A stretch of DNA of 44,985 nt from Chloroflexi bacterium TSY. Lineage in GTDB: Bacteria > Chloroflexota > Anaerolineae > Caldilineales > Caldilineaceae. Positions 5,856 to 33,773 of the stretch are shown here, in pieces. Location: assembly GCA_019217005.1 (NCBI GenBank), contig JAHBNG010000124.1, forward strand, positions 1 through 44,985, given 5' to 3'. The notes beneath the pieces are model-generated. The model searched no databases. It worked only from the letters and a program-made list of their open reading frames with translations, and was not told the origin of the DNA. The first letter of the stretch is position 1; each line of letters begins with the position of its first letter. Position numbers and translations under genes: made by a program.

Positions 5856-5873
5856 ATAGAGACTGTAAATAGA

Positions 5874-11063: not shown

Positions 11064-11441
11064 CAGTAGATCCAAATTTCAGGTTTTGAGAGAGAATTCT
11101 GGCTAAACAGTTGACATAAATACAAATTTGCCGGTCGATATCTAGTTTTTGCGTTAGATTTGGGCGATTTTCAGATATGAAATAGGTTGTTTTCTGTAAC
11201 CGAAATGGGGTGGTTCATTTTAGCTGGATAGATAGGTTTACACTTTTAGAAACAGAAAGAACGTTTATATTCTCTGATTTCGCCGGTTCTCAGAGAGAAA
11301 ACGGTCTCATATAGATTTTTGTCTATATATCAAAAGTGTAAACCTAATTTTGAACCACCCCACCGAAATCTGAATAAATGACTCCAAAATCCCTGCAATC
11401 TCGACTGAAAATAGCCAAAAACGCCAAATTTGGATCTACTG
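11064..11441. repeat. Miniature element family M1, copy 1 (378 bp, contains M2 insert)
   Basis: Ends read CAGTAGATCCAAATTT in inverted orientation and are flanked by AGTCT (11059-11063 and 11442-11446). Subtracting the nested 155-bp element and its 8-base duplication leaves exactly 215 bases, the length of copy 2 at 20970-21184, which it matches in reverse orientation. It lacks a transposase; its ends match those of the ISH3-like element at 24547-25826, so it is probably a non-autonomous relative. Confidence 0.9.
11207..11361. repeat. Miniature element family M2, copy 2 (155 bp), nested inside M1 copy 1
   Basis: Begins GGGGTGGTTCA and ends TGAACCACCCC, with the inner inverted stretch TAGGTTTACACTTTT shared with the 71-bp copy at 8602-8672. 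An 8-base duplication ACCGAAAT flanks it (11199-11206 and 11362-11369); in M1 copy 2 this sequence occurs once and is uninterrupted, which proves the insertion. An 8-base duplication is the rule for families such as IS1595 or ISAs1; the parent element is not in the window. Confidence 0.9.
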
Positions 11442-13087: not shown

Positions 13088-13168
13088 GCTTATCGAAAAA
13101 GTTCTATGACGAACCATTCTTGCTCGAGAATCCGTTTGGACTCACAACCACTTTTCAGACAGGTTTTA
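13088..13168. repeat. Dispersed ~80-bp repeat family D, copy c
   Basis: Reads GCTTATCGAAAAAGTTCT at one end and CCACTTTTCAGACAGG at the other, with a TTGCTCGAGAA centre. The same order is seen at 18816-18894, 33695-33773 and 40555-40634. It lies 24 bases behind the kinase stop, where its hairpin could also end transcription. Confidence 0.7.
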
Positions 13169-13643
13169 AACAACACTCATCAGATGAAGCTGTGCAAATA
13201 GATACTGCTATTTTCTCTGTGAACAGCAGTATGTGCAATTTTCTTAAATGAGTCTATCTCCAAATGCCCTTCATCTCCCCATAAAATCAAGCATCAGATT
13301 AAAAGTCAGCAATAGAATCCCACGGACATCTGGTTGTACTCTAATGGATTTCCAAGATTTATCTGAGTAAATCCGTGTGATCTAAGCACAATTTTTCTCT
13401 AGATTACTCAAGCTTATTATTTTTCAATATGTGTCTATACAACACAAAATATTTCTTCATGATTTGTCCTGACAGAAAATTGTCACACCAATGAATGTAT
13501 TTTTTTGATATCTTTATATACGGCTTTGCTACTCTCTTTCTAAACGAACTCTACGATCATCGCGCGGAAATAAAGACTCGTTTGATTCGCTCAAATGAGT
13601 GAGTATTTTTTTAGATCAAGCCAAGTTGAAGAGCAAGTTGTAC
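13169..13643. other. Intergenic stretch upstream of the biosynthetic genes
   Basis: No convincing gene. A short open frame (13595 onward, ATG overlapping the alternative GTG start of the next gene) ends after about 28 codons and resembles nothing known to me. AT-rich segments near 13430-13520 are plausible promoter territory for the cluster, but no -35/-10 pair stands out enough to name. Confidence 0.4.
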
Positions 13644-15815
13644 ATGTCAAATATTGTCATTTCAGCCACATTCACTGCTGAACCACTAGAACATTCCCTG
13701 ATATTTTTGGGGCATTCAATCAATCATCCGGTTCAGGTTCAATTTGCCCCATATAATCAAGTATTCCAGCAGCTTTTAAGTTCCGAAAGCGAAATCTTAC
13801 AAAATCAGGAAGGAATAAACATCTTCTTGTTGCGCCTGGAAGATTGGGGTCAAGGTGCAGAAAGCGCAAATGCCATTGAGAAAAGCGTGATGGATTTCGT
13901 TTATATGCTCGAATCATTACAGGAGCGCTCAACGATTCCACGACTGATTTGTATCTGTGAGCCTTCTGAGCGGGTTGTCGCTGATTATGTGCTCCATTCG
14001 CTTTGTATGCGCATGGAAAAATATATAATCGATCATTTGGCCCCTCTTTCCAATACATACGTTGTCGAATCAAATGAAATTCGCGAGGCTTATCACTTAG
14101 AACAGATTCATGACATTTACGCTGACCAGGCCGGTCAGATTCCCTACACACAACAATACTTTATCGCGTTAGGTGCAGTCATTGCGCGTAAACTAGATGC
14201 AATTCGACGGGCGCCTCACAAAGTAATTATTTTGGACTGCGATAACACGTTGTGGAAAGGGGTCTGCGGTGAGGATGGAGCTCTCGGCATTGAAGTAGGA
14301 GCATCGTTCCAGGCGCTCCAAGAATTTATGGTTGCCCAATATCATTCGGGAATGCTTCTCTGTCTATGTAGCAAGAATATCGAATCGGATGTACTAGAGG
14401 TTTTCGAGCAGCGCCCAGAGATGCCATTAAAGATTGACCATCTTGTTGCTTGGAAGATCAACTGGTCTCCAAAATCCCAAAATATCAAAGAGTTGGCTCA
14501 GGAATTACAACTTGGAGCAGATAGTTTTATCTTTATTGACGACAATCCGCTGGAATGTGCTGAAGTACGTGCAAATTGCCCCGAAGTTCTGACGCTACAA
14601 CTTCCCGCTGATGAGGCAAATATACCAGACTTTCTAAAACATTTGTGGATCTTTGATCGCATCTCAGTTGCAACAGATGTGGACGCGAAACGCACTCTGC
14701 TTTACCGCCAGAACGTCCAACGAGAGCGCCTGCGTAACAAAGTTCCATCCCTCCAGGAATTTCTAGAAAAGCTGGACCTCAACATACAGATTTCCCCTAT
14801 TCAGCCAGAGCATTTTTCGAGAGTCGCCCAGCTTACGCAGAGAACGAATCAGTTCAACCTCACCACGAGGCGACGCACCGAATCTGAGTTACGCGCGTTT
14901 TGCCAAGACACGAATACAGGATGCTTGATTGCCAATGTCAGTGATCGGTTCGGCGATTACGGCCTTGTGGGAGCTGTTCTCTATGCGCAATCCTCTCAAG
15001 CAATCACTGTAGATACATTTTTGCTGAGTTGTCGTGCATTAGGTCGCGGGGTTGAAGAGCGCTTAATGTCAATTTTAGGTGAGATAGCAACGTCGAAAGG
15101 CATCAATTTTCTAGAGGTTCTTTATTATCCAACAAAAAAGAACAAACCTGCACTCGACTTTCTGACGCGAATTGCAAGCCAGTTTAAGCAAGATCAGCTG
15201 GAGGATCACCTTTTCCACATTCCGGCGGATTACGCAAGTCAGCTGACACAACGACAGGGAAACGCTCTGCCTGCTGAACACTCGGCGGATACCGAAAGCA
15301 CAATGCACCCAACTACTGAGAACGATTCGAGTTCAAGCAGTAGCTCAATGGTTACAGAAATAACTGCTCAGAGTTTGTCAAAGTCTGAACAATATCAGCG
15401 AATCGCGACTGACCTATGCAAAATTTCTTTTGTGCAAAAAATACTAACTGCGACAAGACACTCTCGACCGGTACTTGCACAACCATATGTACCCCCCCAA
15501 ACAGCAACTGAAAAAGCAATCACTGAGATTTGGCAAGATGTCCTACACATTGAGCAAGTTGGACTCAATGATAACTTTACTGAACTTGGTGGAGGGTCGC
15601 TTCATTTGGTCCAAATTTATAGCCAACTCAAAAACTCCATTGCACCAGACCTCGCCATCGTTGCGCTCTTTGACCTGCCCACAATCAGCGCACTCGCTCA
15701 GTATCTCGCCCATCAGAACCGGCAAGAAACCGTTAAAATGAAGGTTCAATCACGCGCGACCCGCCAGAAGCAAGCATTAGAACGACAAAAGAGACGACGA
15801 ATAAAAGTAGCATAA
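13644..15815 (+). CDS. FkbH-like glyceryl loading protein with C-terminal carrier domain
   Basis: About 723 residues. The N-terminal region begins VISATFTAEPLEHSL as in FkbH-like enzymes; therefore the ATG here is preferred over the GTG 45 bases upstream (13599). The HAD-like domain starts with ILDCDNTLWKGVCG (DxDxT nucleophile motif) and carries FIFIDDNPLE later. After a Ser-rich linker comes a phosphopantetheine carrier with ELGGGSLHLVQ. FkbH enzymes take 1,3-bisphosphoglycerate, dephosphorylate it and place a glyceryl group on a carrier. The built-in carrier suggests that glycerate is the starter unit here. The stop overlaps the next start (TAATG), so the genes are translationally coupled. 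Confidence 0.88.
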   Translation: MSNIVISATFTAEPLEHSLIFLGHSINHPVQVQFAPYNQVFQQLLSSESEILQNQEGINIFLLRLEDWGQGAESANAIEKSVMDFVYMLESLQERSTIPRLICICEPSERVVADYVLHSLCMRMEKYIIDHLAPLSNTYVVESNEIREAYHLEQIHDIYADQAGQIPYTQQYFIALGAVIARKLDAIRRAPHKVIILDCDNTLWKGVCGEDGALGIEVGASFQALQEFMVAQYHSGMLLCLCSKNIESDVLEVFEQRPEMPLKIDHLVAWKINWSPKSQNIKELAQELQLGADSFIFIDDNPLECAEVRANCPEVLTLQLPADEANIPDFLKHLWIFDRISVATDVDAKRTLLYRQNVQRERLRNKVPSLQEFLEKLDLNIQISPIQPEHFSRVAQLTQRTNQFNLTTRRRTESELRAFCQDTNTGCLIANVSDRFGDYGLVGAVLYAQSSQAITVDTFLLSCRALGRGVEERLMSILGEIATSKGINFLEVLYYPTKKNKPALDFLTRIASQFKQDQLEDHLFHIPADYASQLTQRQGNALPAEHSADTESTMHPTTENDSSSSSSSMVTEITAQSLSKSEQYQRIATDLCKISFVQKILTATRHSRPVLAQPYVPPQTATEKAITEIWQDVLHIEQVGLNDNFTELGGGSLHLVQIYSQLKNSIAPDLAIVALFDLPTISALAQYLAHQNRQETVKMKVQSRATRQKQALERQKRRRIKVA

Positions 15816-18607
15816 TGACCAACGTCAGTACCGATTTAACCAAGACAGAAAATATAGATACAGATGAGCAAGTAGATGGCATCGCCATTGTTGGAATGGC
15901 TGGTCGTTTTCCAAGTGCACAAAATCTGGATGAATTTTGGGATAATTTGCGGAATGGCGTCAACTGCATCATTCCAATTCCAGATGATGAATTAGAGCTT
16001 TCTAAGTCAGACGCGGCAGTCGCCAAAGACAACCCCAACTATATCAAAAAAGCCGCGGCTGTTGAGGATGCAGATATGTTTGATGCTGCTTTCTTCGGTA
16101 TCTACCCCAAGGAAGCACAGGCCATGGATCCCCAACATCGTATCTTTCTGGAATGCTCATGGCAGGCACTTGAAGATGCAGGATATAATCCTGACACCTA
16201 TGAAGGTGCCATTGGCGTCTTCGCTGGCAGTTACATGAATACCTATATTCTATCAAGCCTCGATACCCATCCAGACTTTATGACCAGCTTGGCAAATTCC
16301 TTTCATGGAGGCTCGCTACAGACCGAGCTCGGCAACGATAAGGATTATCTTGCGACACGAGTCTCATTCAAGCTCAACTTACGCGGCCCTGGTCTGACGA
16401 TTCAAACAGCGTGTTCCACATCTTTGGTTGCTGTGGCTCAGGCCTGCCAAAACTTGATGAGTTACCAGTGCGATATGGCGCTTGCCGGTACGGCAACCTT
16501 ACGTTTTCCACAAAAACGAGGCTATCTCTACGAAGAAGATGGGATGGTTTCACCCGATGGCCGCTGCCGTACCTTTGATGCGAACGCGCGTGGTACGATC
16601 TTTGGGAATGGTGTTGGAGTTGTTCTTCTAAAACGTGTCGAAGATGCGATTGCAGATGGCGATAGCATTTACGCCGTTATCCGAAGCTGGGGTCTGAATA
16701 ATGATGGTGGAACCAAAGTTGGATACACAGCGCCTAGCGCCGATGGGCAAATGGAGGCAATTGCTACTGCTCATGCTTTGGCCGATATCAGTGCTGATAC
16801 CATCACATACATTGAAGCGCACGGTACGGGAACGCCTTTAGGCGACCCAATTGAAATTGATGCTCTAGTAAGAGCATTTCGGTTGACAACGGATGCAAAA
16901 CAATTTTGCGCAATCGGTTCAGCCAAGACAAACATCGGACATCTTGATTGTGCTGCTGGGGTAGCAGGTTTGATTAAGACGGCGCTCTCTTTAACCCATC
17001 GCCAGATTCCCCCAAGTCTACATTTTGAAACGCCCAACCCAAATATTGATTTCGAGAATAGCCCATTTTACGTCAATACCGAATTGTCTGACTGGAATCC
17101 TGGATCGATGCCGCGTCGAGCCGGTATTAGCTCGTTTGGGGTCGGTGGGACGAACGCCCATGTGGTGGTCGAAGAAGCTCCAGCTTTGGAGATCAATCCA
17201 CCACAACGAAAATCTCAACTTGTGACCCTTTCGGCCCGTAGTGAAAAGGCACTCGACGCCATGACAGCAAACTTGGTTGCTTATCTGCGTAAGAATCAAG
17301 ATCTCGAACTGGCCGACGTTGCTCATACCTTGCACGTTGGACGCAAGACATTCGGTCACACTCGAATCGTTGTTGCCGATAGTGCGGAAGACGCTGCGAT
17401 GATTCTGGAGAAGAACAGTTCCCAACGAGTCTACACACATCATCAAGTTCGACGGAATATTCCGGTTGTTTTTATGTTTCCGGGGCAAGGATCGCAATAT
17501 ATCAACATGGGCCGCGATCTTTACGAGTCCGAATCGGTCTTTCGTCAACATTTTGATCGGTGCGCCGACATCCTTACTCAGATTCTAAATTTTGATATTC
17601 GACCCCTGATTTATCCAACAGCGGAATTACCTCTCGCAGAGCAACAGCAAATTAATCAAACGTCAGTCGCCCAGCCTGGAATCTTTGCCGTCGAATATGC
17701 CATCGCTCAGATGTGGATGGCAATGGGGATTCAACCACAGGCATTTATCGGACATAGTGTAGGTGAATTTGTGGCTGCTTGTCTTGCCGGTATCTTTTCT
17801 TTGGAGGATGCATTGGCACTCGTGGCAGCGCGCGGTCGATTGATGCAAGATCTTCCAAGTGGTTCCATGATGGCTGTGCGCACATCTGAACAAAAACTCC
17901 TGCCACTCTTGCCCCCGGACGTTGAAATTGGTGCGATCAATGGGCCATTGCTCTGTGTTATCTCTGGTCCGACAGAGAGCGTAGATATGCTCCAAAAGAA
18001 GCTAGAAGAGCAAGATATTGTCTGTCGAGCTTTGCGTACATCCCATGCATTCCATTCCGCCATGATGGACCCTGTCATTGAGCCATTTTCTGCTCAAATC
18101 AATGAAGTAACACTACGTCCACCGCAGGTTCCGATTTTATCCACAGTGACCACTGAATGGTTAACACCAGAGCAAGCAACTGACCCCACATATTGGGCTG
18201 CTCACCTGCGTAAGACGGTCCGCTTCTCTGAAAGTGTCGGACAACTGCTGGCTGAACAGACATCAATTCTACTTGAGGTGGGCCCTGGACAGACACTTAG
18301 CACACTGGCACGTCAGCATCCGATGCAACATGAGAAGCAAGTGATCCTGTCATCATCCCCTCATGTGCAACAACAGATATCGCATGTAGAATTCATTTTA
18401 CAGACGCTCGGTCGCCTATGGCAGGCAGGTGTCGACATCGATTGGTCCGCACTGTATAGTGGTGAACAACGAAAGCGTGTACACTTGCCAACATACCCAT
18501 TTGAACGGAAGCGTTTTTGGTATGATACTGGTGAGTTTGCAGTGCAAGACGCCCCCAATCGCAGCAGGCGCAACATGAATCTGCCAACAGAATTCATCCT
18601 CCCATGA
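15815..18607 (+). CDS. Type I polyketide synthase module, KS-AT
   Basis: 930 residues. The ketosynthase covers about 22-450: TACSTSLVAVAQ holds the active Cys, EAHGTGTPLGDP and KTNIGHLDCAAG the two catalytic His. After the linker the acyltransferase spans about 545-840: FMFPGQGSQY, GHSVGEF with the active Ser, and HAFHSAMMDP, the malonyl-CoA type. The typical post-AT end YPFERKRFWYD is followed by about 25 residues and a stop. No ketoreductase, dehydratase or carrier is on this protein; the carrier follows on the next open frames. It should elongate the glyceryl starter with one malonate and leave a beta-keto group. The ATGA overlap with the small frame after it may be natural or a one-base frameshift in a once longer protein. 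Confidence 0.92.
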   Translation: MTNVSTDLTKTENIDTDEQVDGIAIVGMAGRFPSAQNLDEFWDNLRNGVNCIIPIPDDELELSKSDAAVAKDNPNYIKKAAAVEDADMFDAAFFGIYPKEAQAMDPQHRIFLECSWQALEDAGYNPDTYEGAIGVFAGSYMNTYILSSLDTHPDFMTSLANSFHGGSLQTELGNDKDYLATRVSFKLNLRGPGLTIQTACSTSLVAVAQACQNLMSYQCDMALAGTATLRFPQKRGYLYEEDGMVSPDGRCRTFDANARGTIFGNGVGVVLLKRVEDAIADGDSIYAVIRSWGLNNDGGTKVGYTAPSADGQMEAIATAHALADISADTITYIEAHGTGTPLGDPIEIDALVRAFRLTTDAKQFCAIGSAKTNIGHLDCAAGVAGLIKTALSLTHRQIPPSLHFETPNPNIDFENSPFYVNTELSDWNPGSMPRRAGISSFGVGGTNAHVVVEEAPALEINPPQRKSQLVTLSARSEKALDAMTANLVAYLRKNQDLELADVAHTLHVGRKTFGHTRIVVADSAEDAAMILEKNSSQRVYTHHQVRRNIPVVFMFPGQGSQYINMGRDLYESESVFRQHFDRCADILTQILNFDIRPLIYPTAELPLAEQQQINQTSVAQPGIFAVEYAIAQMWMAMGIQPQAFIGHSVGEFVAACLAGIFSLEDALALVAARGRLMQDLPSGSMMAVRTSEQKLLPLLPPDVEIGAINGPLLCVISGPTESVDMLQKKLEEQDIVCRALRTSHAFHSAMMDPVIEPFSAQINEVTLRPPQVPILSTVTTEWLTPEQATDPTYWAAHLRKTVRFSESVGQLLAEQTSILLEVGPGQTLSTLARQHPMQHEKQVILSSSPHVQQQISHVEFILQTLGRLWQAGVDIDWSALYSGEQRKRVHLPTYPFERKRFWYDTGEFAVQDAPNRSRRNMNLPTEFILP

Positions 18608-18813
18608 ACGATGTTGCATCAACTTCGCTCATGTCAAACAGGCTATCGAAAGAAACACCTCCGCCGGCAGCGATTCAAGCACAATCTGTCCAGCAACCGA
18701 ACGGTCACGGCGCGCAACATGAAATCGTGCAGCACCTCGTCCAGCAACAGCTCCACTTGATGGTTCAACAGTTAGCCACCTGGCAAGCCCATCAGCTCAA
18801 TCATAGTCAATAA
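18604..18813 (+). pseudogene. Detached AT-to-ACP linker segment of the megasynthase
   Basis: 69 codons with no catalytic motif. The composition (Pro/Gln-rich, then HLVQQQLHLMVQQLATWQAHQ) is that of the glutamine-rich linker found between AT and carrier domains in PKS modules of the mycosubtilin/microcystin type; a second such stretch, AQQMQLMSMQLAMLSGQ, follows the ACP downstream. The frame is closed by TAA at the edge of a family D repeat. So it is most likely the piece that once joined KS-AT to the ACP, cut off by the repeat insertion. Whether it is translated as a separate peptide is unknown. Confidence 0.55.
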
Positions 18814-18815
18814 GA

Positions 18816-18894
18816 AGCTATCCGAAAAGTGGCTGCGAATCCAATTCATTTCTCGAGCGAGAACAGATCGTCACAGAACTTTTCGGATAAGCAG
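18816..18894. repeat. Dispersed repeat family D, copy a
   Basis: The ends are inverted (AGCTATCCGAAAAGT and CTGCTTATCCGAAAAGT on the other strand). TAAGA flanks both sides (18811-18815, 18895-18899), a possible target duplication. About 80% identical by eye to copy b at 33695-33773. It closes the reading frame of the linker segment. Confidence 0.75.
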
Positions 18895-19091
18895 TAAGAG
18901 TAGCCCCAATATTTGATTTTGGTTATCATTTCGGCAAGTTGGAAGATATCTTTCGAGTGGCTGAAACGATCACCAATGGTAGACAAGATGCCCATATACC
19001 TATCCAGAAAAGTTTTGTCCCGTCACAGCTCTGGGAGACGGGGTATAAAACTTTTCTGGAAACTATATGACGATGAAACAAGGTTGTTATT
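18895..19091 (+). other. Foreign segment with gene remnant and 58-base hairpin
   Basis: An open frame without start codon (18900-19070) encodes about 56 residues including FDFGYHFGKLEDIFRVAET and PSQLWETGY; it looks protein-like but I do not recognise it. The hairpin at 19003-19060 pairs TCCAGAAAAGTTTT with AAAACTTTTCTGGA and its outer end resembles the family D ends. Because the flanking frames read as linker and ACP of one PKS, the whole stretch with copy D appears inserted into the synthase. Confidence 0.5.
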
Positions 19092-21510
19092 ATGCCACAG
19101 AACACAAACCGCGAAAGCCAAATTTTATCGATTCTTGACACGATTTTAAGCGATCTATCTGGTTTTGAATTGAGTGAATTAGATATGTCAGCCTCTTTTT
19201 TAGAACTTGGCTTCGATTCGCTCTTTCTAATTCAATTCAGCACGAGTATCAAAGGCGAATTGGGTGTACAAGTCTCTTTCCGCCAGATGATTGAAGAGAC
19301 CCCGACGTTTCCCTCCTTAGCTGCTTATCTTGATGCGAATTTGGCACCTGATGCTCTGACTTCTATCGCCTCTGAAGAAGCAGAGCCACTTTTAGAATCG
19401 GCTTCAATGGTCGTTCCGGATGGGGAAACGGAGCAGGATGTATATACATCAACCTCTGCACCCGTACCAATCTCTGCTTCAGAACCACCGACGCCTGTAC
19501 CTCTGCAACAATTTACACCGCCGACATTGCCCACGCCATCCATGCCCCCACCGGGACCAACGGCACCGAATCCTGCATCAACGAGTGGATTAGAGGCATT
19601 GCTTGCCCAACAAATGCAGTTAATGTCGATGCAGTTAGCCATGCTAAGTGGACAAGCGATGCCGGCCCAAACGCAAATCCCACAAGTAGAACTGCCTCCG
19701 GTCAAATCGCCTCCGCCACAGCCCTCAAATATCCCTCCTACGCCGACACAAGCAACACAGAATGGCTCTGTCGCACAGAAAAGCATTCTTCCCAAGGATG
19801 ACAAAAATAAGACTGAAGAGCAATATAAACCCCAAAGCAGCAAAGAGATGAAACCTTTTGGGGCTATTGCGCGGATTGAGACCAACAAAAGTGATGATCT
19901 AACTCCGCAACAGCAACAGTGGCTCAGCGAATTTATCAATCGCTATAACGCAATGACCAGCAAGTCGAAGGCGTTCACGGCAGAGCATCATGCATATATG
20001 GCAGATCCGCGCGTTGTTTCAGGCTTTAAGTCCAAAATCAAAGAGCTCATTTATCCCATTGTGGCAAGTCGAACCAATGGGTGTCGGATTTGGGATCTGG
20101 ATGGTAATGAATATGTTGACGCACTCAATGGCTTCGGTTCTAATTTCTTCGGGTATGCGCATCCCAAAATCACGCAAGCCGTTGTAGACCAACTCTGGCT
20201 TGGCACAGAAATTGGTCCCCAAAATCCACTCACGGGCGATGTGGCAAAGATCATCTGTGAGATGACTGGTATGGAGAGAGCAGCCTTTTGCAACACTGGT
20301 TCAGAAGCCGTTATGGGTGCCATGCGTATCGCTCGTACTGTCACTGGACGGAAACTGATTGCGATTTTTACTGGGTCATATCACGGTATATTCGACGAAG
20401 TCTTGGTTCGAGGCACAAAAAAGTTACGCTCAATTCCGGCCGCCCCCGGTATTATGCCTTCCACGGTTGAAAATGTATTGGTTCTGGATTATGGGACGGA
20501 AAAATCGCTGCAAATCCTGCGTGAACGCGCTCACGAATTAGCGGCTGTTATGGTTGAGCCAATCCAAAGCCGACGACCTGATTTCCAGCCGCGTGAATTT
20601 CTTCATGAAGTTCGCAAAATTACCCAAGATGCAGAGTGTGCCTTTATCTTTGATGAGGTCATTACTGGCTTTCGCATGGGACCAGGAGGTGCCCAAGACT
20701 TTTATGGAATTGATGCGGACATTGGAACATATGGCAAGGTGATTGGTGGCGGGATGTCAATCGGCGTTGTGGCGGGGAAAGCCAAGTGGATGGATGCTCT
20801 GGATGGTGGTCCATGGTGCTATGGTGATGATTCTGTCCCTGAAGTGGGCGTTACCTACTTCGCGGGGACATTTGTACGTCATCCAGCTGCCATTGTTGCT
20901 TGTAAAGCTGCCTTGGAAATTCTCCAGGATGAGGGACCTGCGCTCCAACAACGAGTCAACAATCAGACTCAGTAGATCCAAATTTGGCGTTTTTGGCGAT
21001 TTTCAGTCGAGATTGCAGGGATTTTGGAGTCATTTATTCAGATTTCGGTTACAGAAAACAACCTATTTCATATCTGAAAATCGCCCAAATCTAACGCAAA
21101 AACTAGATATCGACCGGCAAATTTGTATTTATGTCAACTGTTTAGCCAGAATTCTCTCTCAAAACCTGAAATTTGGATCTACTGAGACTACCTATCTTGT
21201 TTCAGAGCTAGACAACTTCTTCCGTGATCGAGAGGTCCCCCTCGAAATCAAATCATTCAGCTCGCTTTGGCGGATAACCTATACCGACAGCGTGCCGTAT
21301 GGTGAGCTACTTTTCTATCTGATTCGTGAAAAAGGGGTTCATATTTATGATGGTTTCCCCTGCTTCCTGACCATGGCGCATACGGACAATGATGTCGAAA
21401 TCATCATCCGTGCAATCAAAAAGAGCATTGTTGAGCTTCAACAAGCTGGTTTTTTGCCCCAACCCGCGCACGAGGTGGCGCAAGCTGATTTTTTTGCGAT
21501 AGCCAACTAG
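19092..21510 (+). pseudogene. ACP-aminotransferase part of the hybrid megasynthase, split by element M1
   Basis: The carrier comes first (ELGFDSLFLIQ, Ser near residue 43), then a long Pro/Gln linker, then a class-III PLP aminotransferase from about residue 255: FCNTGSEAVMGAMR, FTGSYHGIFDE, FIFDEVITGFRMG and the Lys motif TYGKVIGGG. The coding is continuous until 20969, where a 215-bp element interrupts; removal of it and one AGACT copy gives NNQTTYLVSELDNFF and a normal aminotransferase end. Such in-line AMT domains turn a beta-ketoacyl thioester into a beta-aminoacyl thioester. The frame then fails at a seven-T run (21489-21495): adding one T would join it to the condensation domain. Motifs are intact. 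Confidence 0.88.
20970..21184. repeat. Miniature element family M1, copy 2 (215 bp)
   Basis: Inverted ends CAGTAGATCCAAATTT, flanked by AGACT at 20965-20969 and 21185-21189. It has the same sequence as M1 copy 1 minus its nested insert, in the opposite direction. No coding capacity. It sits inside the aminotransferase domain. Confidence 0.93.
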
Positions 21511-22688
21511 ATGAAGGCCATTTCCCTCTCACCGAGGCGCAAATGGAAATCTGGTTGGCGTCACAAATGGGCGATGATGCTTCTTGCGCATACAACGAAC
21601 CGTTTATGGTTCAACTAAATGGCCTCTGCGATCTGAACGGGTTGCGCCAGGCAATTCAGACAATCCTTGCGCGTCATGAGGCACTCCATCTGCGGTTTAG
21701 TCCCGATGGTGGTTATCAGCAAAAAACGACACCGCGACCAATTGAGATCCCGTTCCAGGATTTTGCGGAACTAGAAACAGAAGTTAAAGAAGCACGACTT
21801 CAAGAGATATTGGCGGCAGCGGCAGCGACACCTTTTGATCTGACACATGGGCCGCTGGTTCGTGTACAGATTTTGAGATTAGCGGAAGAACAACACCTCA
21901 TTGTTTTCTCCTGCCATCACATTGTCTGTGACGGTTGGTCTTGGAATCATATGCTACAGGAGATCGGTCAGGTCTATACAGCATTGAGCAAAGGAACCCC
22001 TTATCGGTTGCCCAGAACGTTCTCTTATAGCAATTTTGTTGTGGCTGAGATGCAGCGACAGACGACCGATGCGGTGAAGGCTTCTTATGATTATTGGCTC
22101 ACACAATTTGCCGAGTTGCCACCCGCACTGGATTTGCCCACGGACTATACACGTCCTCCCGTCAAAAGCTACAAGGGTGGAACTGTGACGTACCACTTCA
22201 AGTCGGATGTTTATGATGCCATAAAACACACAGCCGCTGAACAGAGGGCAAGTCTGTTCTCGATCTTGTTTGCTAGCTTCAATTTGCTGCTTGCCCGCTT
22301 ATCCGGTCAAACAGATGTGGTCATGACTGTTCCCGCAGCAGGGCAACTCATGGTCGGTGAAACATCGCTTGTGGGTCATTGCGTCAACCTGTTGCCGATC
22401 CGTACGAAGCTCGAAATGGACGTCACGTTCAGCGAGCTATTGACGGCAACAACGACAAAGATCCTGGATGCCTATGATCATCAAGAATCCACGCTTGGAG
22501 GGATCATCAAGCGTCTCGACATGCCGCGAGATATCAGCCGTATTCCGCTGGCCGAAGTCAATTTCAATGTCGACCGAGATGATGCTGGGGTTAAGTTTGG
22601 CAACTTAGATGTGAGCATAGCCCAAACGCCGAAAGAAGCAGTTATCTTTGACATCTTTTCAACATCAATGAAACCCGCGATGGACTGA
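21496..22688 (+). pseudogene. NRPS condensation domain part of the megasynthase
   Basis: In-frame coding can be followed from the frame break near 21496 through HFPLTEAQMEIWLA, the usual start of a condensation domain. The active motif HHIVCDGWSW is intact (near 21918), as are DYWLTQFAEL, and a GHCVNLLPIR stretch. The frame is lost again at the T run 22654-22657: with one more T it would read DIFFNINETRDGLMVDCDF, as expected at the C-to-A border. So the ATG at 21543 and the stop at 22688 are products of frameshifts and not natural limits. The domain should join the beta-amino acid to the amino acid held on the following carrier. Confidence 0.85.
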
Positions 22689-24546
22689 TGGTCGATTGTG
22701 ACTTCAATACAGATCTTTATCGTCATGAAACCATTCAGCATTGGATTGCCTGCTACGAGACACTACTCACGAGCATTGCGGCAAATCCAGCACAGCCGCT
22801 GGCAACGCTCAACCTGTTGCCCGCTGTTGCCCGCGAGCGAATTTTGGTCGATTGGAATCAAACGCAACACGAGTACCCTTCTGATCAAAGCGTACATCAA
22901 CTCTTTATCCAGCAGGCAATGCGTACGCCCGATGCGATTGCTGTGGTTGCCGATCAACAAAGTTATACATACGGTGAACTCAACCATCGGTCGAATCAGG
23001 TGGCCAATTATCTACGCAGTTGTGGTGTTCAAAGAGAGATGCTGGTCGGCATCTGTTTGGAACGTTCGCTCGATCTGGTTGTAGGATTGCTTGGTATCTT
23101 GAAAACGGGTGCTGCCTATGTCCCCATGGATCCCATCTATCCTGCCCAACGCTTGGCTTATATGATTGCCGACGCTCAGATGGAGTTTATCCTGACAGAA
23201 CAGTCACTAGCGAATGAGCTTGGTGAACACAATGCTGTCATCATTTGTATCGATTCCGATTGGGCAAAGATTGAAGAACAAGCCGATACCTTTGTACAGG
23301 TGGAAGCAGAACCAGAAAATTTGGCCTACGTAATCTATACATCTGGTTCTACCGGCAATCCAAAAGGTGTTCAGATCCCGCATCGAGCATTGACCAACTT
23401 TCTCTGCTCCATGCAGCGCGAGCCAGGAATCAAACCCGATGATGTTCTGGTCAGTGTCACAACGATTTCGTTTGATATTGCAGCCTTAGAGCTATATCTA
23501 CCACTGATTACCGGTGCCCGTTTGGTGGTGATAGATCCAGAAACAGCCACAGATGGACGCGTTTTAGCAGATGAGCTAAAACGACATGGGGCAACAGTAA
23601 TGCAGGCAACACCAGCCACTTGGCGGCTGCTTCTCGAATCTGGCTGGACAGGTCGTGATGGTCTGAAAATGCTCTGCGGCGGAGAAGCGCTACCTGTTGA
23701 TCTGGTCCAGAAGCTGCTAATGTTTGAAGGCGAACTCTGGAACATGTATGGTCCAACCGAGACGACCATCTGGTCAACGACGCACCGGATCTTGCCAGAG
23801 GAAACAACGATTTCGATTGGACGACCGATCGCAAATACGCAAATCTATTTGCTCGACAAGCATTTGCAACCAGTCTCTCCTGGGGTTGTTGGCGAGCTTT
23901 ACATTGGTGGAGACGGGCTGGCACGCGGCTACCTTAATCGAGATGAGCTGACGGCAGAAAAATTTGGTCAGCATCCATTCGACGAATCGCCGAATGCTCG
24001 ACTGTATGCGACAGGCGATCTGGCGCGTTACTTACCAGATGGGCGCATCGAGTGTTTAGGGCGTAGTGATTCGCAAGTAAAATTACGGGGATTCCGCATT
24101 GAGCTAGGTGAAATCGAAGCGACACTCAATCAACAGGCTGGTATTCGCCAAGCGGCGGTTGTTGTATGCGAAGATGGGCCAGGAGATAAACGTCTAGTGG
24201 CTCACCTTGTGGCGGAAGAGGAGCAACCCTCGGTTTCTGAACTGCGCAACGGTCTACGTCAATATCTGCCAGAGTATATGATCCCAGCCACATTTATATT
24301 CTTGGATGCAATGCCGCTAACTCAGAATGGCAAAGTTGATCGCAAAGCCCTACCTGCACCGGACGGACAGGAAGTATTGTCAGAGCAGGAGTATGTTGCG
24401 CCCCAGACACCGGTGGAGATCGAACTTGCATCAATCTGGTCTGATATATTGAACGCCCCGCAAGTTGGGTTACACGATAACTTTTTTGATCTGGGCGGCC
24501 ATTCGCTATTGGCAACGCGGATGATTGTTCGGCTTCGAGATAGACT

Positions 24547-25826
24547 CAGTAGATCCAAAAATCAGATACCAAGGGGGTCAACAAGAGAGAAAATGATAGA
24601 AACAACCCCATAGATATTTTCGATAGCACGATTAAGAAAAGAAGAAAAGCGTGGCAGCTCAAAACGAGTGGTATCGATTTGTCGCCGTCCTTGGCATTTG
24701 AGTTGGCAGAAGCGATGGCGTAGCTCTATCCAGAAGTTGACAAGAATAAAGCCCAGGCTGATGAGCAAGAAGCGGAGAGCGCCATTGCGGGAGGTAGTCC
24801 AAGCGCGAACTTTGCGCATACAGCGATAGCTGGTTTCGATGCCAAAGCGTTTGCGGTAGAGTTTGCGAACAGTTCTGGGATTGAAGGAGCAGTTCAAGAC
24901 GACATAAACAAGCCAAGTTGCGCGTCGCTTTGCTTGTTTGCTGCGTTTGTGAGAAGTATAGGTTCGCACAATGGCAACAGGAGCCGTGAAGGAACCGTAT
25001 TGCGCACTTTCAAAGGTATGCTGGGTAGAATAGCTCTTGTTCCCTTGACAAAGTCCTCGGGTTCCTCCTGTCTTCCCGCGAATGGAACAGGCGATGATGG
25101 CAGGCCAACCGCTTTGTTTTATGGACTCTAGAACTGGACTCGAACAAAACCCTTTATCCAGGTATAAACGGCGTACTTTCAGCCCTAAAATGCGCAAACG
25201 ACGCAACAATGAGGTCACGATATCAGCTGTTTTATCTTCGGGACGGACGAACAGAATACTCAACGTCACCCGCACATCCTTAAATATGACGTAGGCTGTG
25301 GCTACTCGAAAGAATCGGGTTGTGCCTTTCTCTGCTTCACCACGGCAGGTCAGCTCGAGGAGTTCTGGACTCTTGCCGTAGAAGGGTTCATCGTGAAAGT
25401 CTATTGCGATTTCTAGCTTTGTTTTCATCAGCCGACCTGGCAATCCGGCTACCAGGGCTTGGTTGACTTGTCGCTCCAAATTCTGCAAGTCATCTACTCT
25501 TACCTGCTCCTTCAGATAGCTACGGATCGTTTCACCATCAACCATTTCTGGCAGGTCTTTACACACACTTTCTATGGTTTGTCTCGTCACTGCTGCTTTC
25601 ACCAACACATCAAATCCCTTTTCGGGCGTACATTCATATCCCGATATTTCTAGCGGTAGATATCTGTTCAATCTCTCTCTACCGCTTCATTGCGACTATC
25701 TCTGTCTGTTAACTTTAGCTTTGTTTGTTGGGCCATCTCTCTGCTCCTTTTCACTATTTAAGGTGCAGCATAGATTACACTTTTTCTCTCTAATTTCAAC
25801 TTTTTACTTGAAATTTGGATCTACTG
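24547..25826 (-). mobile_element. ISH3-like insertion sequence (1280 bp)
   Basis: Inverted ends CAGTAGATCCAAA with diverging inner bases; flanks AGACT (24542-24546) and AGTCT (25827-25831), one base apart from a perfect 5-base duplication. One transposase on the minus strand fills it. Its ends match both M1 miniature elements, which are therefore probably moved by its enzyme. Length, end length and 5-base duplication agree with the ISH3 family as I know it; family name moderate. Confidence 0.85.
24562..25671 (-). CDS. Transposase, DDE type, ISH3-like
   Basis: 369 residues, intact. The first Asp motif is AIDFHDEPFYGK near residue 88, the second LYLDKGFCSS near residue 170, and the Glu lies in the YRKRFGIETSYRCMRK helix near residue 275, giving a DDE triad with the Y-x-K/R-R-F-x-I-E signature. 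The C-terminus is basic with a hydrophobic helix LLISLGFILVNFW. It reads opposite to the NRPS gene it disrupts. As the only complete transposase of this family in the window, it is the likely source of mobility for the two M1 elements with matching ends. Confidence 0.85.
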   Translation of the reverse strand: MNRYLPLEISGYECTPEKGFDVLVKAAVTRQTIESVCKDLPEMVDGETIRSYLKEQVRVDDLQNLERQVNQALVAGLPGRLMKTKLEIAIDFHDEPFYGKSPELLELTCRGEAEKGTTRFFRVATAYVIFKDVRVTLSILFVRPEDKTADIVTSLLRRLRILGLKVRRLYLDKGFCSSPVLESIKQSGWPAIIACSIRGKTGGTRGLCQGNKSYSTQHTFESAQYGSFTAPVAIVRTYTSHKRSKQAKRRATWLVYVVLNCSFNPRTVRKLYRKRFGIETSYRCMRKVRAWTTSRNGALRFLLISLGFILVNFWIELRHRFCQLKCQGRRQIDTTRFELPRFSSFLNRAIENIYGVVSIIFSLVDPLGI

Positions 25827-26151
25827 AGTCTACAAGTTGAGTTGCCGATGCGCACAGTCTTTGAATCACCAACGGTTCATGAGTTGGCCCTTGCCATAAC
25901 AGAGCTTTTGGCCTCTGATGAGGATGACGACGAATTGTTGAGCATGATTAAAGAGCTACAAGAACTCTCTGGCGATGATCTGGATAGCGTCTTAAACGCT
26001 ACCTAAGGTATCTGCTCAACCGGAAATGGTTGGACAGAGCTGACCTTTCCGGAAGAGGTCAAGAGTTGTCTGGCATTCAAGGCGATTTCTAACCTTTTCC
26101 GGGAAGATCTTGTTTCAATTGGTTGAGACGATACTGACTGAGGAATCAACA

Positions 26152-29037
26152 ATGAGCAAGCTTGCAGAGGCAATCAGCCAGCTTAGCCCAGAACAGCGGG
26201 CTATTCTTGAACAGAGATTACAAGAGAAACGAAAAAAACAAACGCAGATTGACCGAATCCTGCCTCGTATCGATCAGAGTGAATTTCCACTTTCGGCTGG
26301 TCAACAACGCCTCTGGATTTTGCACCAACTGGATCCTCGCTCTGCAGCGCATAATATCACTGAAGCATTCCATCTGAAAGGTGTCCTCAATATTGAAGCA
26401 TTTGAGAAGAGTCTTGATCTGATTCAGCGTCGGCATGAAGTTTTGCGCGCCCGTTTTTTTGTGGCAGGGGAAAACTCCGTCGCACATCCCTCAAAGCCGA
26501 AACAGGACAATACGCTTCTGAGTGAGTATGCAGCGGGTGGGATGGAGCCAGTGCAAACAATCGTTGCTCCAGAGCCATATGCGCTATCACAAATTGACTT
26601 GCAATCCGACTCAAGTGACGAGCGGTTCGAGATCGCACGGCAGCGCATACAAAATATGGCGCGACAGCCATTTAATCTGGCCCATGAGCCACTGTGGCGT
26701 GTCCAACTCTTTCGTCTGGCTCAAGATGAAAATATATTCGTCTTGTCAATGCATCATATGCTCACAGACGTTTGGTCGTTTGAGTTGTTCTTGCAAGAAC
26801 TTGGAGCACACTATGCTGCCTGCGCCAATCAAGAAACTCCTACGTTGGCCGTCTTGCCGATTCAGTATGCAGATTTCGCTTGGTGGCAACAGCGATGGCT
26901 AACAGAGAGTAAAGCCACAGCTCAACTTGCCTATTGGGAAAACAAACTCGCTGGCGATATCGCCCCACTCCGCTTGCCTACGACGCGTGAACGAACAGGG
27001 CTACAGCAGGCAACGGCTGCACAGGTGACCAGCACTATCTCGTCACAAATCCTTCAGGGGCTCGAGATGCTTGCCCGCAAAGAGGGCATTTCGCTCTTTA
27101 GCCTGCTACTCAGTGTGTTCAAGGCAACCCTCTATCGTTATACGGAACAACAGAAGATGGTTGTCTGTTCGCCTGTTGCTGGACGCAGGTATAGCGAACT
27201 TGAAGGGTTGCTCGGTTACTTCAATAACATCGTGGCCCTGTGCACAGATGTATCCGAAAATCAGACGCTTTCTGCGTTGATACAGCAGGTTCATCAAAAT
27301 GTCCTTGAAGCACATGAGAATCAAGAAGTGCCATTTCAACAGGTATGTGAACTGCCAAATCTGATCCGTGTGCCGCTTTCTCGGGCCTTGTTTACCCTTC
27401 AGGACGCCTTAGAAGCGTCGCTTAATTTGCCCGATATAACAGTGACTCAATTAGAGGTAGAGGCCGAGATTGCTGATTTTGATCTGTCGATCTTCATTGA
27501 ACGCCAAGATAACTCCCTCACAATTGTTACTGATTACAAGAAGGAGTTGTTTGAGCGCCAGATTATCCAAGGAATAGTGGACGATTATCTTTCCGTTTTG
27601 AAACTCCTCCCGGAAAATTTCCACCAGGAAATATCTACTCTGCCGATTTCTAGAAATTCACTGTGCATAGAAAGATCTGAGCACGCCTGGCCCTTCAATG
27701 AGAATCCAAGCACAATTCATTTGCAGACGAATGCTCTCAGTGAAGACATTCATACGAACGGACATTCTCTGGATAGGCAACATTCGTCTGCTGCGCACCT
27801 CAATGGAACATGCACACATGAGATTGCGCGACAGAAGACTTCTTCAGATTTAGGCACGATGAGTGCTCTGGAACAATCACTCCCACCTGTCACAGTGGCG
27901 CGTACGGAATTGGAAGAAAATCTAGTGGAGATCTGGAAACAGGTGCTGAACCTGGAAACTGTGGGGATTCACCAAAACTTCTTTGCATTGGGGGGTCATT
28001 CGATGCTGGCCGTGCATCTATTCAGCGAGATTCAGCAACAGATTACAAAAGCACCTGTGCCATCTGTGCAACAGTTGCTGCAAGCACCAACTGTTGCACA
28101 GATGGCCAAAGCTCTCACAAATGAGGAGGAGTCGCCAGAGTGGTCTCCTTTGACGCTGATTCAGCCAGGAACGAATGTTCGGCCAACTCTCTTCTGTATT
28201 CATGGTGCGGGCGGAAATGTCTTGATTTATCGGGAATTGGCGACTTATCTTGGGCCAGAACAGACCGTTTATGGTCTGCAGTCGCAAGGGCTTGACGGGC
28301 AGCAGCCGCTTCAGACCAGCGTTGAAGAGATGGCTGAACTCTATCTACGCCATATTCAAGAGGTACAACCTCGGGGGCCATATATGATTTGTGGCTACTG
28401 CATGGGGGGGACCGTTGCCTTAGAGTTAGCACATCAATTACGTGAACAAGGAGATGAAGTGGCGTTCTTGGGCTTTCTGGAGACGTATAACTGGGCCAAC
28501 CTACGTGAAGAGAACTTTGTCGATCACGCTTACTATTGGTGGCAGAAAATCGTCTTCCATTGGCGCAACTTCTTGCTTCTCGATACTCCACAAAAGCGCA
28601 TGTTTCTCGCTGAAAAATGGGATGCGTTGCGACAACGAACGAAAGTTTGGCGAGGTTCGTTCCAACAGATCTTAAAACGGAGTCAAGGAAATCGAGTTTC
28701 TGAACAAGCGGTTCACTCAGATAAGGCGCTTTCTGCTACGATGACGCCGGAACAGATTTTGGCAGCAGTTTGGGACAACAACGATGCGGTATCAATGCGC
28801 TATCAACCCAAACCTTATGCCGGGCGAATCACTTGCTTCCGCCCACGCAAGGAATACACAATCTATCTAAGCCAAGACACGGGGTGGGAAAAGTTTGCCC
28901 AAGATGGCATTGAGAATCGAACGCTACCCGTCTATCCAGCGGGAATGCTTTTGGAGCCGTTTGTGCAGAAACTTGCCAACGAGATGTCCGACTCGATTGA
29001 CAAGGCACTCCAAAATGTGTATAGTGGTGATGCTTAA
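26152..29037 (+). CDS. NRPS terminal protein, C-PCP-TE without adenylation domain
   Basis: 961 residues from the ATG behind GAGGAATC; the ATG 42 bases upstream is less likely because MSKLAEAISQLSPEQRA is a typical docking start. The condensation domain (about 45-470) has HHMLTDVWS, where Val replaces the usual Gly after Asp. A low-similarity linker leads to a carrier (FFALGGHSMLAVHLF) near 620. The last part is a thioesterase-like alpha/beta hydrolase starting LFCIHGAGGNVLIY; its nucleophile elbow reads GYCMGG with Cys for Ser, the usual Asp position reads FLETYN, and the expected His near the C-terminus is not seen (VYPAGMLLEP). No adenylation domain exists, so the carrier must be loaded in trans or stay unloaded. 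It follows the megasynthase in the same direction. Confidence 0.88.
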   Translation: MSKLAEAISQLSPEQRAILEQRLQEKRKKQTQIDRILPRIDQSEFPLSAGQQRLWILHQLDPRSAAHNITEAFHLKGVLNIEAFEKSLDLIQRRHEVLRARFFVAGENSVAHPSKPKQDNTLLSEYAAGGMEPVQTIVAPEPYALSQIDLQSDSSDERFEIARQRIQNMARQPFNLAHEPLWRVQLFRLAQDENIFVLSMHHMLTDVWSFELFLQELGAHYAACANQETPTLAVLPIQYADFAWWQQRWLTESKATAQLAYWENKLAGDIAPLRLPTTRERTGLQQATAAQVTSTISSQILQGLEMLARKEGISLFSLLLSVFKATLYRYTEQQKMVVCSPVAGRRYSELEGLLGYFNNIVALCTDVSENQTLSALIQQVHQNVLEAHENQEVPFQQVCELPNLIRVPLSRALFTLQDALEASLNLPDITVTQLEVEAEIADFDLSIFIERQDNSLTIVTDYKKELFERQIIQGIVDDYLSVLKLLPENFHQEISTLPISRNSLCIERSEHAWPFNENPSTIHLQTNALSEDIHTNGHSLDRQHSSAAHLNGTCTHEIARQKTSSDLGTMSALEQSLPPVTVARTELEENLVEIWKQVLNLETVGIHQNFFALGGHSMLAVHLFSEIQQQITKAPVPSVQQLLQAPTVAQMAKALTNEEESPEWSPLTLIQPGTNVRPTLFCIHGAGGNVLIYRELATYLGPEQTVYGLQSQGLDGQQPLQTSVEEMAELYLRHIQEVQPRGPYMICGYCMGGTVALELAHQLREQGDEVAFLGFLETYNWANLREENFVDHAYYWWQKIVFHWRNFLLLDTPQKRMFLAEKWDALRQRTKVWRGSFQQILKRSQGNRVSEQAVHSDKALSATMTPEQILAAVWDNNDAVSMRYQPKPYAGRITCFRPRKEYTIYLSQDTGWEKFAQDGIENRTLPVYPAGMLLEPFVQKLANEMSDSIDKALQNVYSGDA

Positions 29038-29082
29038 TTTTGTCACTCATTATCGAATTAGCGATCCAAAGTCAATTTAGAA

Positions 29083-29844
29083 ATGACATGGTATTCACCA
29101 CCAGATCCCCCGAAGCTTCAGACACGGCAAGTACATATCTGGCGAGTAAGTTTAGAGCAACCGTTGACCAGAATCGAGTATCTACGTCAATGGTTATCTC
29201 CTGATGAGGTAGAACGTGCCGAGCGCTTCTATTTTGAACGAGATCGGAAGCACTATATTGTAGGGCGCGGTCGGTTACGCGAATTGCTTAGCCTCTATCT
29301 AAACTGTTCGCCAGATCAGATACAATTTGAGTACAGTGAGTATGGCAAGCCAACACTTGCTGCGCACTTGCAAGATTTGGTTGACGGATCCCAATCCGCG
29401 CAAAGGGGCCATTTGCAGTTCAACCTTTCCCATTCGGGAGATCTCGTCCTCTATGCCTTTACGCACGATCGGGCGATTGGAGTGGACATCGAATACATGA
29501 AGCGAGATATTTCTTGTCTTGAGATTGCAGATAGCTTTTTCTCGGCCCAAGAGGTTGCAACGCTACATTCTCTGCCAGAGTCAATTCATCGTCAAGCATT
29601 TTTTAACTGTTGGACCCGAAAGGAAGCTTATATTAAGGCACACGGGGAAGGCTTGTCACTGCCGCTCAGTCAATTTGATGTATCATTAAAACCTGGTGAA
29701 CCGGCGGCTCTTCTGGCAACACGTCCCAACCCAGAAGAGGTCAACCAATGGACAATGGATGAATTATTTCCTGGACAAGATTATACTGCTGCGGTCGTTG
29801 TAGAGGGCAGTAGTTGGGAACTCCAAACATTTGATGGTGGTTAA
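29083..29844 (+). CDS. Sfp-type 4'-phosphopantetheinyl transferase
   Basis: 253 residues, the usual size of the Sfp group. Seen in order: VGRGRLRELL, FNLSHSGDLVLYAF, IGVDIEYMKRD with the Mg-binding Asp-x-Glu, and FNCWTRKEAYIKAHGEGL containing the W-x-x-K-E-A-x-x-K core. It moves the phosphopantetheine arm from CoA to the carrier Ser of the synthases upstream (the four carriers at about 15596, 19218, 24508 and 28000). Starts 45 bases behind the C-PCP-TE stop. Its stop codon overlaps that of the convergent lipoprotein gene. Intact although the synthase it serves is broken; it could still serve other synthases. Confidence 0.93.
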   Translation: MTWYSPPDPPKLQTRQVHIWRVSLEQPLTRIEYLRQWLSPDEVERAERFYFERDRKHYIVGRGRLRELLSLYLNCSPDQIQFEYSEYGKPTLAAHLQDLVDGSQSAQRGHLQFNLSHSGDLVLYAFTHDRAIGVDIEYMKRDISCLEIADSFFSAQEVATLHSLPESIHRQAFFNCWTRKEAYIKAHGEGLSLPLSQFDVSLKPGEPAALLATRPNPEEVNQWTMDELFPGQDYTAAVVVEGSSWELQTFDGG

Positions 29845-33651: not shown

Positions 33652-33694
33652 GAACGACCCGTCGACACTATTTTCTTTGAATTGTTTTACTAAG

Positions 33695-33773
33695 AACCTA
33701 TCCAAAAAGTGGTTGTGAGTCCAACCAGCCTCTCGAGTGAGAATAGATCGTCACAGAACTTTTCGGATAAGCA
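33695..33773. repeat. Dispersed repeat family D, copy b
   Basis: Same orientation as copy a: AACCTATCCAAAAAGTGG at the left, TTTTCGGATAAGCA at the right, CTCTCGAGTGAGAA in the middle. CTAAG flanks it at 33690-33694 and 33774-33778. Its right flank is also the left end of the next element. Confidence 0.75.

What the first reader, a model, noticed from the sequence alone, without database searches (positions are those of the whole stretch)
13644..29844. Compact PKS/NRPS cluster predicted to build a 3-amino-4,5-dihydroxypentanoyl-glycyl core
Domains in order: FkbH loader with carrier; KS; malonyl-type AT; ACP; aminotransferase; C; A; PCP; then C-PCP-TE and a Sfp-type PPTase. By known functions a glyceryl starter plus one malonate, then transamination of the beta-ketone, gives a 3-amino-4,5-dihydroxy acid, which is then joined to an amino acid. 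No ketoreductase or dehydratase is present. I know no described product with exactly this start. The combination of glyceryl starter and in-line beta-amination is uncommon.
Basis: partly seen in the sequence, partly recalled or inferred. Interest (0 to 1): 0.75.

Follow-up and report, generated by a model that had tools for sequence, protein, structure and literature searches.

The report
Broken glycerate-started amino-polyol peptide cluster
This stretch holds a small gene cluster that once seems to have built an unusual amino-alcohol peptide starting from a sugar-breakdown product; this copy is broken by jumping DNA, but a related bacterium carries a comparable set with its genes unbroken.

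Summary
The listed domains are present in the stated order. The 3-amino-4,5-dihydroxypentanoyl unit is then joined to an amino acid, probably glycine (recalled code).

This copy is broken. A small insert splits the aminotransferase gene, an IS splits the first PCP, and the frame is lost inside C1 and in the KS-AT tail. It is very unlikely to make the product.

The plan is shared. Nitrospirales MAG NPIRA02 carries it in three open genes. Three unnamed contigs, judged by shared contig length, pair close FkbH-CP and ACP-aminotransferase relatives. The five linked aminotransferases fall in one 15-row clade. It is rare: 1 of 80 fetched genome loci.

Extra finding: the terminal C-PCP-thioesterase lacks an A domain, and its thioesterase has Cys and Glu but no His at the usual place, as in 15 of 78 domains compared.

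Known parts, apparently undescribed combination.

The parts
13644..15815 (+). FkbH-type HAD glyceryl loader with N-terminal extension and fused C-terminal carrier; uninterrupted
   Evidence: TIGR01686 4.2e-91, PP-binding 3.1e-11; DCDNTLW, LSCRALGR and GGGS motifs; 50% identical to P0002 and P0003
15815..18607 (+). KS-AT (malonyl-type AT by HAFH, recalled meaning); both domains complete, C-terminal tail loses frame at about 18605
   Evidence: 58% identical to L004 KS-AT
18608..18813 (+). former KS-AT tail in a different frame, ending at a stop
   Evidence: translation compared by eye with the L004 tail
18811..18898 (.). 88-bp repeat element between KS-AT and ACP genes; copy at 33691-33778, inverted relative at 13085-13176
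19092..20969 (+). ACP and most of the PKS-type class-III aminotransferase
   Evidence: MycA of mycosubtilin synthase is the best solved relative; 68-69% identical to P0122 and P0123
20970..21184 (.). 215-bp non-coding insert (MITE-like), ends CAGTAGATCC...GGATCTACTG, flanked by AGACT on both sides; splits the aminotransferase gene
   Evidence: near-identical copy in the kinase gene at 11064-11441
21190..21510 (+). C-terminal part of the aminotransferase, in another frame
   Evidence: 82.7% identical to P0122 residues 599-708
21510..22658 (+). C1 condensation domain, first part (HHIVCDG motif)
   Evidence: 51% identical to L004 C domain
22604..24546 (+). end of C1 in a shifted frame, A domain, 5' part of PCP1
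24547..25826 (-). IS with DDE_Tnp_1 transposase (ORF 24562-25671), same ends as the small insert, flanked by AGACT and AGTCT; splits PCP1
25832..26006 (+). 3' part of PCP1 and gene end
   Evidence: sequence read directly
26152..29037 (+). A-less terminal module C2-PCP2-TE (open frame from 26110); TE has Cys nucleophile, Glu acid, no His at the usual place
29083..29844 (+). Sfp/HetI-type phosphopantetheinyl transferase
   Evidence: ACPS 2.9e-19; HetI model 228.5 bits, below its 370 cut-off

Best explanation
The locus is the recently broken copy of a small PKS/NRPS assembly line. FkbH takes a three-carbon glyceryl unit (from 1,3-bisphosphoglycerate, by the literature on the family) and loads it, dephosphorylated, on its own carrier. 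KS-AT extends it by one malonate to 4,5-dihydroxy-3-oxopentanoyl-ACP. The in-line aminotransferase converts the beta-ketone to give 3-amino-4,5-dihydroxypentanoyl-ACP. C1-A-PCP1 adds an amino acid, most likely glycine. C2-PCP2-TE, which has no A domain, accepts the chain and releases or transfers it; whether it adds a second unit loaded in trans is unknown. Shown by computation: domains, order, motifs, breaks, and a relative with open genes. Inferred: every chemical step, glycine, and the release step.
For: Domain hits and motifs. The aminotransferase's best solved relative is MycA, whose AMT acts on a beta-ketothioester (PMC3870968, passage). NPIRA02 (L004) has FkbH-CP, KS-AT and ACP-AMT-C-A-PCP-TE in three open genes in the same order. 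P0002+P0122, P0003+P0123 and P0101+P0130 share contig lengths 36234, 91360 and 18830 and a source. All 5 FkbH-linked AMTs lie in one 15-row clade, support 99, in a 184-row tree. The FkbH domain is 55-62% identical to those partners but 30-31% to the FkbH of the extender-like sets. FkbH-PCP as a glycerate loader is the published proposal for suomilide (PMC13122637, passages); FkbH domains are proposed to load 1,3-bisphosphoglycerate, and activation of 3-phosphoglycerate was shown for vioprolide (PMC10099666, passages).
Against: No biochemistry, and no characterised FkbH or KS sequence was at hand. A fragmented myxococcal MAG with an AMT in the same clade has only carrier-domain matches to FkbH-CP in 7.4 Mb, so the clade may not always go with glyceryl; the FkbH label needs 4 changes on the AMT tree, as low in 18 of 500 shuffles. 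In the FkbH tree only P0002 and P0003 group with the window (3 rows, 95); P0101 and L004 sit on long branches elsewhere, so FkbH may have joined more than once. NPIRA02's A domain looks threonine-like (recalled code), so the second unit varies. Contigs of the closest relatives could not be fetched; co-occurrence rests on contig lengths. None of the 120 C-PCP-TE relatives listed (of 621) lies on the 36234- or 91360-bp contig, and none of the 120 FkbH relatives listed (of 7748) on the 144450-bp contig of P0129.
Confidence: 0.72

Rival explanations
1. FkbH serves an extender pathway: the glyceryl unit is oxidised on a carrier to a hydroxymalonyl-type extender that the KS-AT module uses, and the starter is something else.
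For: In genome G063 (L103) a short FkbH sits beside a 3-hydroxyacyl-CoA dehydrogenase and an acyl-CoA dehydrogenase, directly upstream of a KS-AT-ACP-AMT protein; G084 and G328 have similar ORF sizes and an FkbH at the same place.
Against: The 20 flanking window ORFs scanned gave no 3HCDH or acyl-CoA dehydrogenase hit. The window FkbH is fused to a carrier and only 30-31% identical to the extender-set type. In NPIRA02 the 3.6 kb before FkbH hold no ORF of 150 aa or more; the rest of that genome was not searched for these enzymes.
Confidence: 0.1
2. FkbH-CP does not feed the KS; glyceryl goes to C2-PCP2-TE as a terminal ester or amide unit, while the KS uses another acyl starter.
For: C-PCP-TE P0243 and FkbH-CP-FkbM P0051 share contig length 25164, contig number 6 and source. 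C-FkbH-T units insert glycerate through a C domain in vioprolide and corramycin (PMC10099666, passages) and C-fkbH-PCP occurs in cystomanamide (PMC9581180, passage).
Against: NPIRA02 has FkbH-CP next to KS-AT and no second C domain. No other loading domain was found in the window cluster.
Confidence: 0.1
3. The cluster in this genome still works, and the frame breaks are partly sequencing or assembly errors.
For: The two frame changes (about 18605 and 22604-22658) could be base-calling errors; conserved motifs are otherwise intact.
Against: The inserts at 20970-21184 and 24547-25826 have inverted ends and flanking short repeats and split coding domains; a near-identical insert also splits the kinase gene.
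Confidence: 0.06

Closest known systems
Iturin/mycosubtilin-type beta-amino acyl synthases (MycA, ItuA, BamA)
   Same: PKS module, AMT and NRPS module in a row; AMT sequence is of the MycA kind
   Different: There a fatty-acyl ligase loads the starter (PMC4219810, passages); here FkbH-CP does, and the predicted product is a short polar amino-diol
Suomilide/banyaside bsl loading module (FkbH-PCP)
   Same: FkbH loads a glycerate unit on a PCP as the first step (PMC13122637, passages)
   Different: There the glycerate goes straight into an NRPS; here a KS-AT follows
Vioprolide/corramycin and cystomanamide C-FkbH-T modules
   Same: FkbH with a carrier in an NRPS
   Different: Glycerate is inserted through a C domain, not extended by a KS (PMC10099666, PMC9581180, passages)
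Streptomyces CoL/T-KS/AT/ACP/AMT protein tabulated in PMC5932044
   Same: KS/AT(m)/ACP/AMT order (passage)
   Different: Starter loaded by a CoA-ligase domain; the FkbH in that paper belongs to another cluster
Nitrospirales bacterium NPIRA02 cluster (L004/L108)
   Same: Same three-step plan in the same order, all frames open
   Different: ACP-AMT-C-A-PCP-TE in one gene, other A code, no A-less C-PCP-TE beside it, TE with Ser and His (read by eye)
Cys thioesterases SulTE and ObiF TE
   Same: Cys nucleophile
   Different: SulTE has His and both have Asp after strand 7 (PMC11298585, passages); this pattern has Glu at the usual Asp place and no His at the usual place

Membership tests
FkbH glyceryl loaders (HAD-IIIC) | FkbH domain over the curated cut-off with DxD HAD motif and a carrier | tested here: met
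   TIGR01686 305.5 bits against a 146.65 cut-off; DCDNTLW and fused PP-binding
FkbH glyceryl loaders (HAD-IIIC) | Transfers and dephosphorylates a phosphoglyceryl unit | not testable with these tools
   needs enzyme assay
PKS-embedded beta-aminotransferases (MycA type) | Class-III AMT beside an ACP, between KS-AT and C, with PLP Lys and Asp | tested here: met
   K549 and D521 invariant in A1; their roles as PLP Lys and Asp are recalled
PKS-embedded beta-aminotransferases (MycA type) | Uninterrupted gene in this genome | tested here: not met
   split by a 215-bp insert
FkbH extender (hydroxymalonyl/methoxymalonyl) sets | 3-hydroxyacyl and acyl dehydrogenases beside FkbH | tested here: not met
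   no such Pfam hit in the 20 flanking ORFs scanned
Iturin-type lipopeptide synthases | Fatty-acyl ligase loading | tested here: not met
   FkbH-CP instead; the only AMP-binding domain found in the cluster lies after C1
Ordinary type I NRPS thioesterases | Catalytic His near the C-terminus | tested here: not met
   VYPAGM at that place; no His there in any of 12 (window plus P0242-P0252). Two other His columns exist: the HG motif (12 of 12) and FHxRNF (9 of 12)

The most novel reading that the evidence does not exclude
A conserved family of glyceryl-started, beta-aminated mini assembly lines makes short polar amino-diol peptides. In this branch the chain passes to an A-less C-PCP-TE whose thioesterase type has dropped the catalytic His and holds the chain on a Cys with a Glu nearby, so that it hands the product to a nucleophile, perhaps a cell-surface polysaccharide, rather than hydrolysing it.
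Probability: 0.2. Interest if true: 0.7.

Novelty: new variant of a known kind. Interest (0 to 1): 0.48.

Why it matters
Glycerate loading and in-line beta-amination are each known, but their direct coupling was not found in the paper searches made. If it works as read, it gives a three-gene route of about 11.6 kb (NPIRA02) to 3-amino-4,5-dihydroxy acids that is small enough to rebuild in vitro. The Cys/Glu thioesterase type without the usual His, if active, would be an unusual way of chain release and is directly testable.

Tried and rejected
A genome-contig scan with the single FkbH protein found nothing; the scan with alignment A1 worked. FkbH relatives in Aquisphaera (L001) and Streptomyces (L003) plasmids lie in sugar or polysaccharide gene neighbourhoods without a KS-AT match, and the record of Niallia (L002) carries almost no annotation, though a KS match lies about 2 kb upstream of FkbH; all were set aside as too distant.

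Glycine by homology to LgrA was considered and dropped: both LgrA A domains score nearly alike. The fold of the whole C-PCP-TE (pLDDT 76.9) and its structural comparison gave mainly condensation-domain matches and do not bear on the TE site; model coordinates were not in the script box. A six-term paper search for a Cys TE lacking His returned nothing; it was narrow. Four MAGs (G396-G399) and the Niallia record searched with C-PCP-TE gave partial matches only. The TE comparison started from the 360 proteins listed (window's own P0241 left out) plus window and NPIRA02; 78 passed a filter for a GxSxG/GxCxG motif, a 200-340-residue tail and an upstream HxxG motif. NPIRA02's TE did not pass and is described by eye.

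Contig-length pairing was done by eye. Besides the pairs used, lengths 3731 (P0021, P0166) and 6229 (P0061, P0319) also coincide, with different sources; taken as chance, they show that a shared length alone is not proof.

Full report
What is there. The window carries, all on the + strand, FkbH-CP (13644-15815), KS-AT (15815-18607), ACP-aminotransferase (19092 onward), C-A-PCP, C-PCP-TE (26152-29037) and a Sfp/HetI-type PPTase (29083-29844). No ketoreductase or dehydratase was among the Pfam hits of the nine stretches scanned (18605-19090 was not scanned, as it holds stops).

It is broken. A 215-bp non-coding insert at 20970-21184 with ends CAGTAGATCC/GGATCTACTG and AGACT on both sides splits the aminotransferase. 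An IS with a DDE transposase and the same ends (24547-25826; flanks AGACT and AGTCT) splits the first PCP. The frame changes inside C1 between about 22604 and 22658, and the KS-AT tail continues in another frame after about 18605. A copy of the small insert, matching over 149 and 85 bases at 100% and 99%, splits the kinase gene upstream (11064-11441) and itself carries a nested insert, so the insertions look recent. The two frame changes alone could be sequencing errors; the inserts could not easily be.

The plan is conserved. One of these 80, and one of the 73 with more than 6 kb upstream of the match, has an FkbH domain in the fetched stretch: Nitrospirales bacterium NPIRA02, L004. There the order is FkbH-CP (762 aa), KS-AT (993 aa), ACP-AMT-C-A-PCP-TE (2061 aa), all open. 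Among proteins from unnamed sources, close FkbH-CP and ACP-AMT relatives share contig length and source in three cases (36234, 91360, 18830). C-PCP-TE P0245 shares contig length 9312 and source with ACP-AMT P0127. Two further coincidences (3731, 6229) have different sources and are taken as chance. In a tree of 184 aminotransferases, window, P0122, P0123, P0130 and NPIRA02 fall in one clade of 15 rows with support 99; within the whole tree the FkbH label needs 4 changes, as low in 18 of 500 shuffles. Of the other ten rows of the clade, one, a myxococcal MAG (L005/G396), has only carrier-domain matches to FkbH-CP in 7.4 Mb of fragmented assembly. Eight lie on contigs of 2.8-9.8 kb, and the 144-kb contig of P0129 could not be fetched; no FkbH listed (120 of 7748) has its length. 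In the FkbH tree (127 rows) P0002 and P0003 group with the window (95), but P0101 and L004 do not join them closely.

Starter or extender. In 395 genomes of NPIRA02's phylum, 6 had an aminotransferase match at 1e-100, and 4 of these 6 have an FkbH within about 5.5 kb upstream. One is NPIRA02. In G063 the FkbH is short, lacks a carrier, and sits beside a 3-hydroxyacyl-CoA dehydrogenase and an acyl-CoA dehydrogenase, the recalled signature of a hydroxymalonyl or methoxymalonyl extender set. G084 and G328 have similar ORF sizes but were not annotated. The window shows no such dehydrogenases in the 20 flanking ORFs scanned (small and antisense ORFs and the last 1.2 kb were not scanned), and its FkbH domain is 55-62% identical to the carrier-fused partners and 30-31% to the short ones. 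The starter reading is therefore preferred for the window and NPIRA02.

Chemistry. Glyceryl loading by FkbH on a PCP is the published proposal for suomilide, and FkbH activation of 3-phosphoglycerate is reported for vioprolide. The aminotransferase's best solved relative is MycA, whose AMT aminates a beta-ketothioester. With a malonyl-type AT and no reductive domain, 3-amino-4,5-dihydroxypentanoyl-ACP follows. The A-domain code read by eye is DILQLGMIWK, which I recall as glycine-like; NPIRA02 reads about DFWNIGMVF, recalled as threonine-like. Similarity to solved A domains does not decide it.

Last module. C-PCP-TE without A is a recurrent protein: P0242-P0251 are 38-41% identical to the window's, over 97-98% of it in all but one (P0248, 55%). 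Its TE has GYCxGG and Glu (ETYNW or near) where Asp is usual in all 12 of window plus P0242-P0252. At the place of the catalytic His the window and P0242-P0251 read VYPAGM, VFPAGM or VYPGGM, and P0252 AYPSAT. Two other columns hold His, the HG motif (12 of 12) and FHxRNF (9 of 12), so a base elsewhere is not excluded. Over 78 TE domains the combinations were Ser/Asp/His 33, Cys/Asp/His 26, Cys/Gln/His 2, Cys/Glu/no His 15, Cys/Asn/no His 2; none had Ser without His (His sought within one column of the place). The 15 comprise 12 A-less C-PCP-TE (window included), one FkbH-CP-TE (P0021) and two C-A-PCP-TE (P0314, P0315). They are not an exclusive clade in a quick tree: they lie in a clade of 24, support 0.757. 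An acidic residue before a Tyr (KEY, KDY, QEY, QDY or EDY) after the next strand is present in all 12 (by eye). SulTE also uses Cys but keeps His. So this TE is probably not an ordinary hydrolase; what it does is open.

Setting. Genes on both sides concern polysaccharides (flippase, HlyD, glycosyltransferases, Wzz, epimerase) and signalling (FHA, PP2C, kinase). The source organism is not known; Chloroflexota is a weak guess from P0129, named 'Chloroflexota bacterium', in the same aminotransferase clade.

Literature. Searches for FkbH with aminotransferase, glyceryl, NRPS or bisphosphoglycerate, and for beta-amino/glycerate, dihydroxypentanoic and mycosubtilin terms listed no paper that, from titles, abstract starts and the passages read, describes a glyceryl starter followed by KS-AT-ACP-AMT. 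The bafilomycin, tetromadurin, foxicin, oocydin and abyssomicin papers, which hold FkbH, were seen as listings only. Only open-licence papers are held, and MIBiG could not be searched.

Verdict. Observation confirmed and interpretation supported; the locus is a broken member of a small, rare family whose parts are known and whose combination appears undescribed.

Noticed in passing
26152-29037; P0021, P0242-P0252, P0314, P0315: Thioesterase pattern with Cys nucleophile, Glu in place of Asp and no His at the usual place; 15 of 78 TE domains compared, no Ser-type TE lacks His.
   Followed up: partly
11064-11441 and 20970-21184: Two near-identical MITE-like inserts with the ends of the IS at 24547-25826; the kinase copy contains a nested element (about 11207-11361) whose relative lies alone at 8602-8672.
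   Followed up: partly
13085-13176, 18811-18898, 33684-33778: About 90-bp imperfect repeat found just upstream of the cluster, inside it, and downstream of it.
   Followed up: no
5873-7378 and 37273-38773: About 1.5-kb inverted repeat pair (90-99% alike) flanking a 30-kb stretch that contains the whole cluster; the ORFs 6242-7279 and 37623-38162 in it have no Pfam hit.
   Followed up: no
L103 (G063), L104 (G084), L105 (G328): Another cluster type in NPIRA02's phylum: FkbH (with HCDH and acyl-CoA DH beside it in L103) before a protein of about 3450 residues, in L103 KS-AT-ACP-AMT with an A and three C domains; looks like an extender-type FkbH with beta-amination.
   Followed up: partly
L001 15001-17052: FkbH-CP-TE in a planctomycete plasmid polysaccharide locus; together with P0051 (FkbH-CP-FkbM) it suggests glyceryl carriers may also serve polysaccharide decoration.
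   Followed up: no
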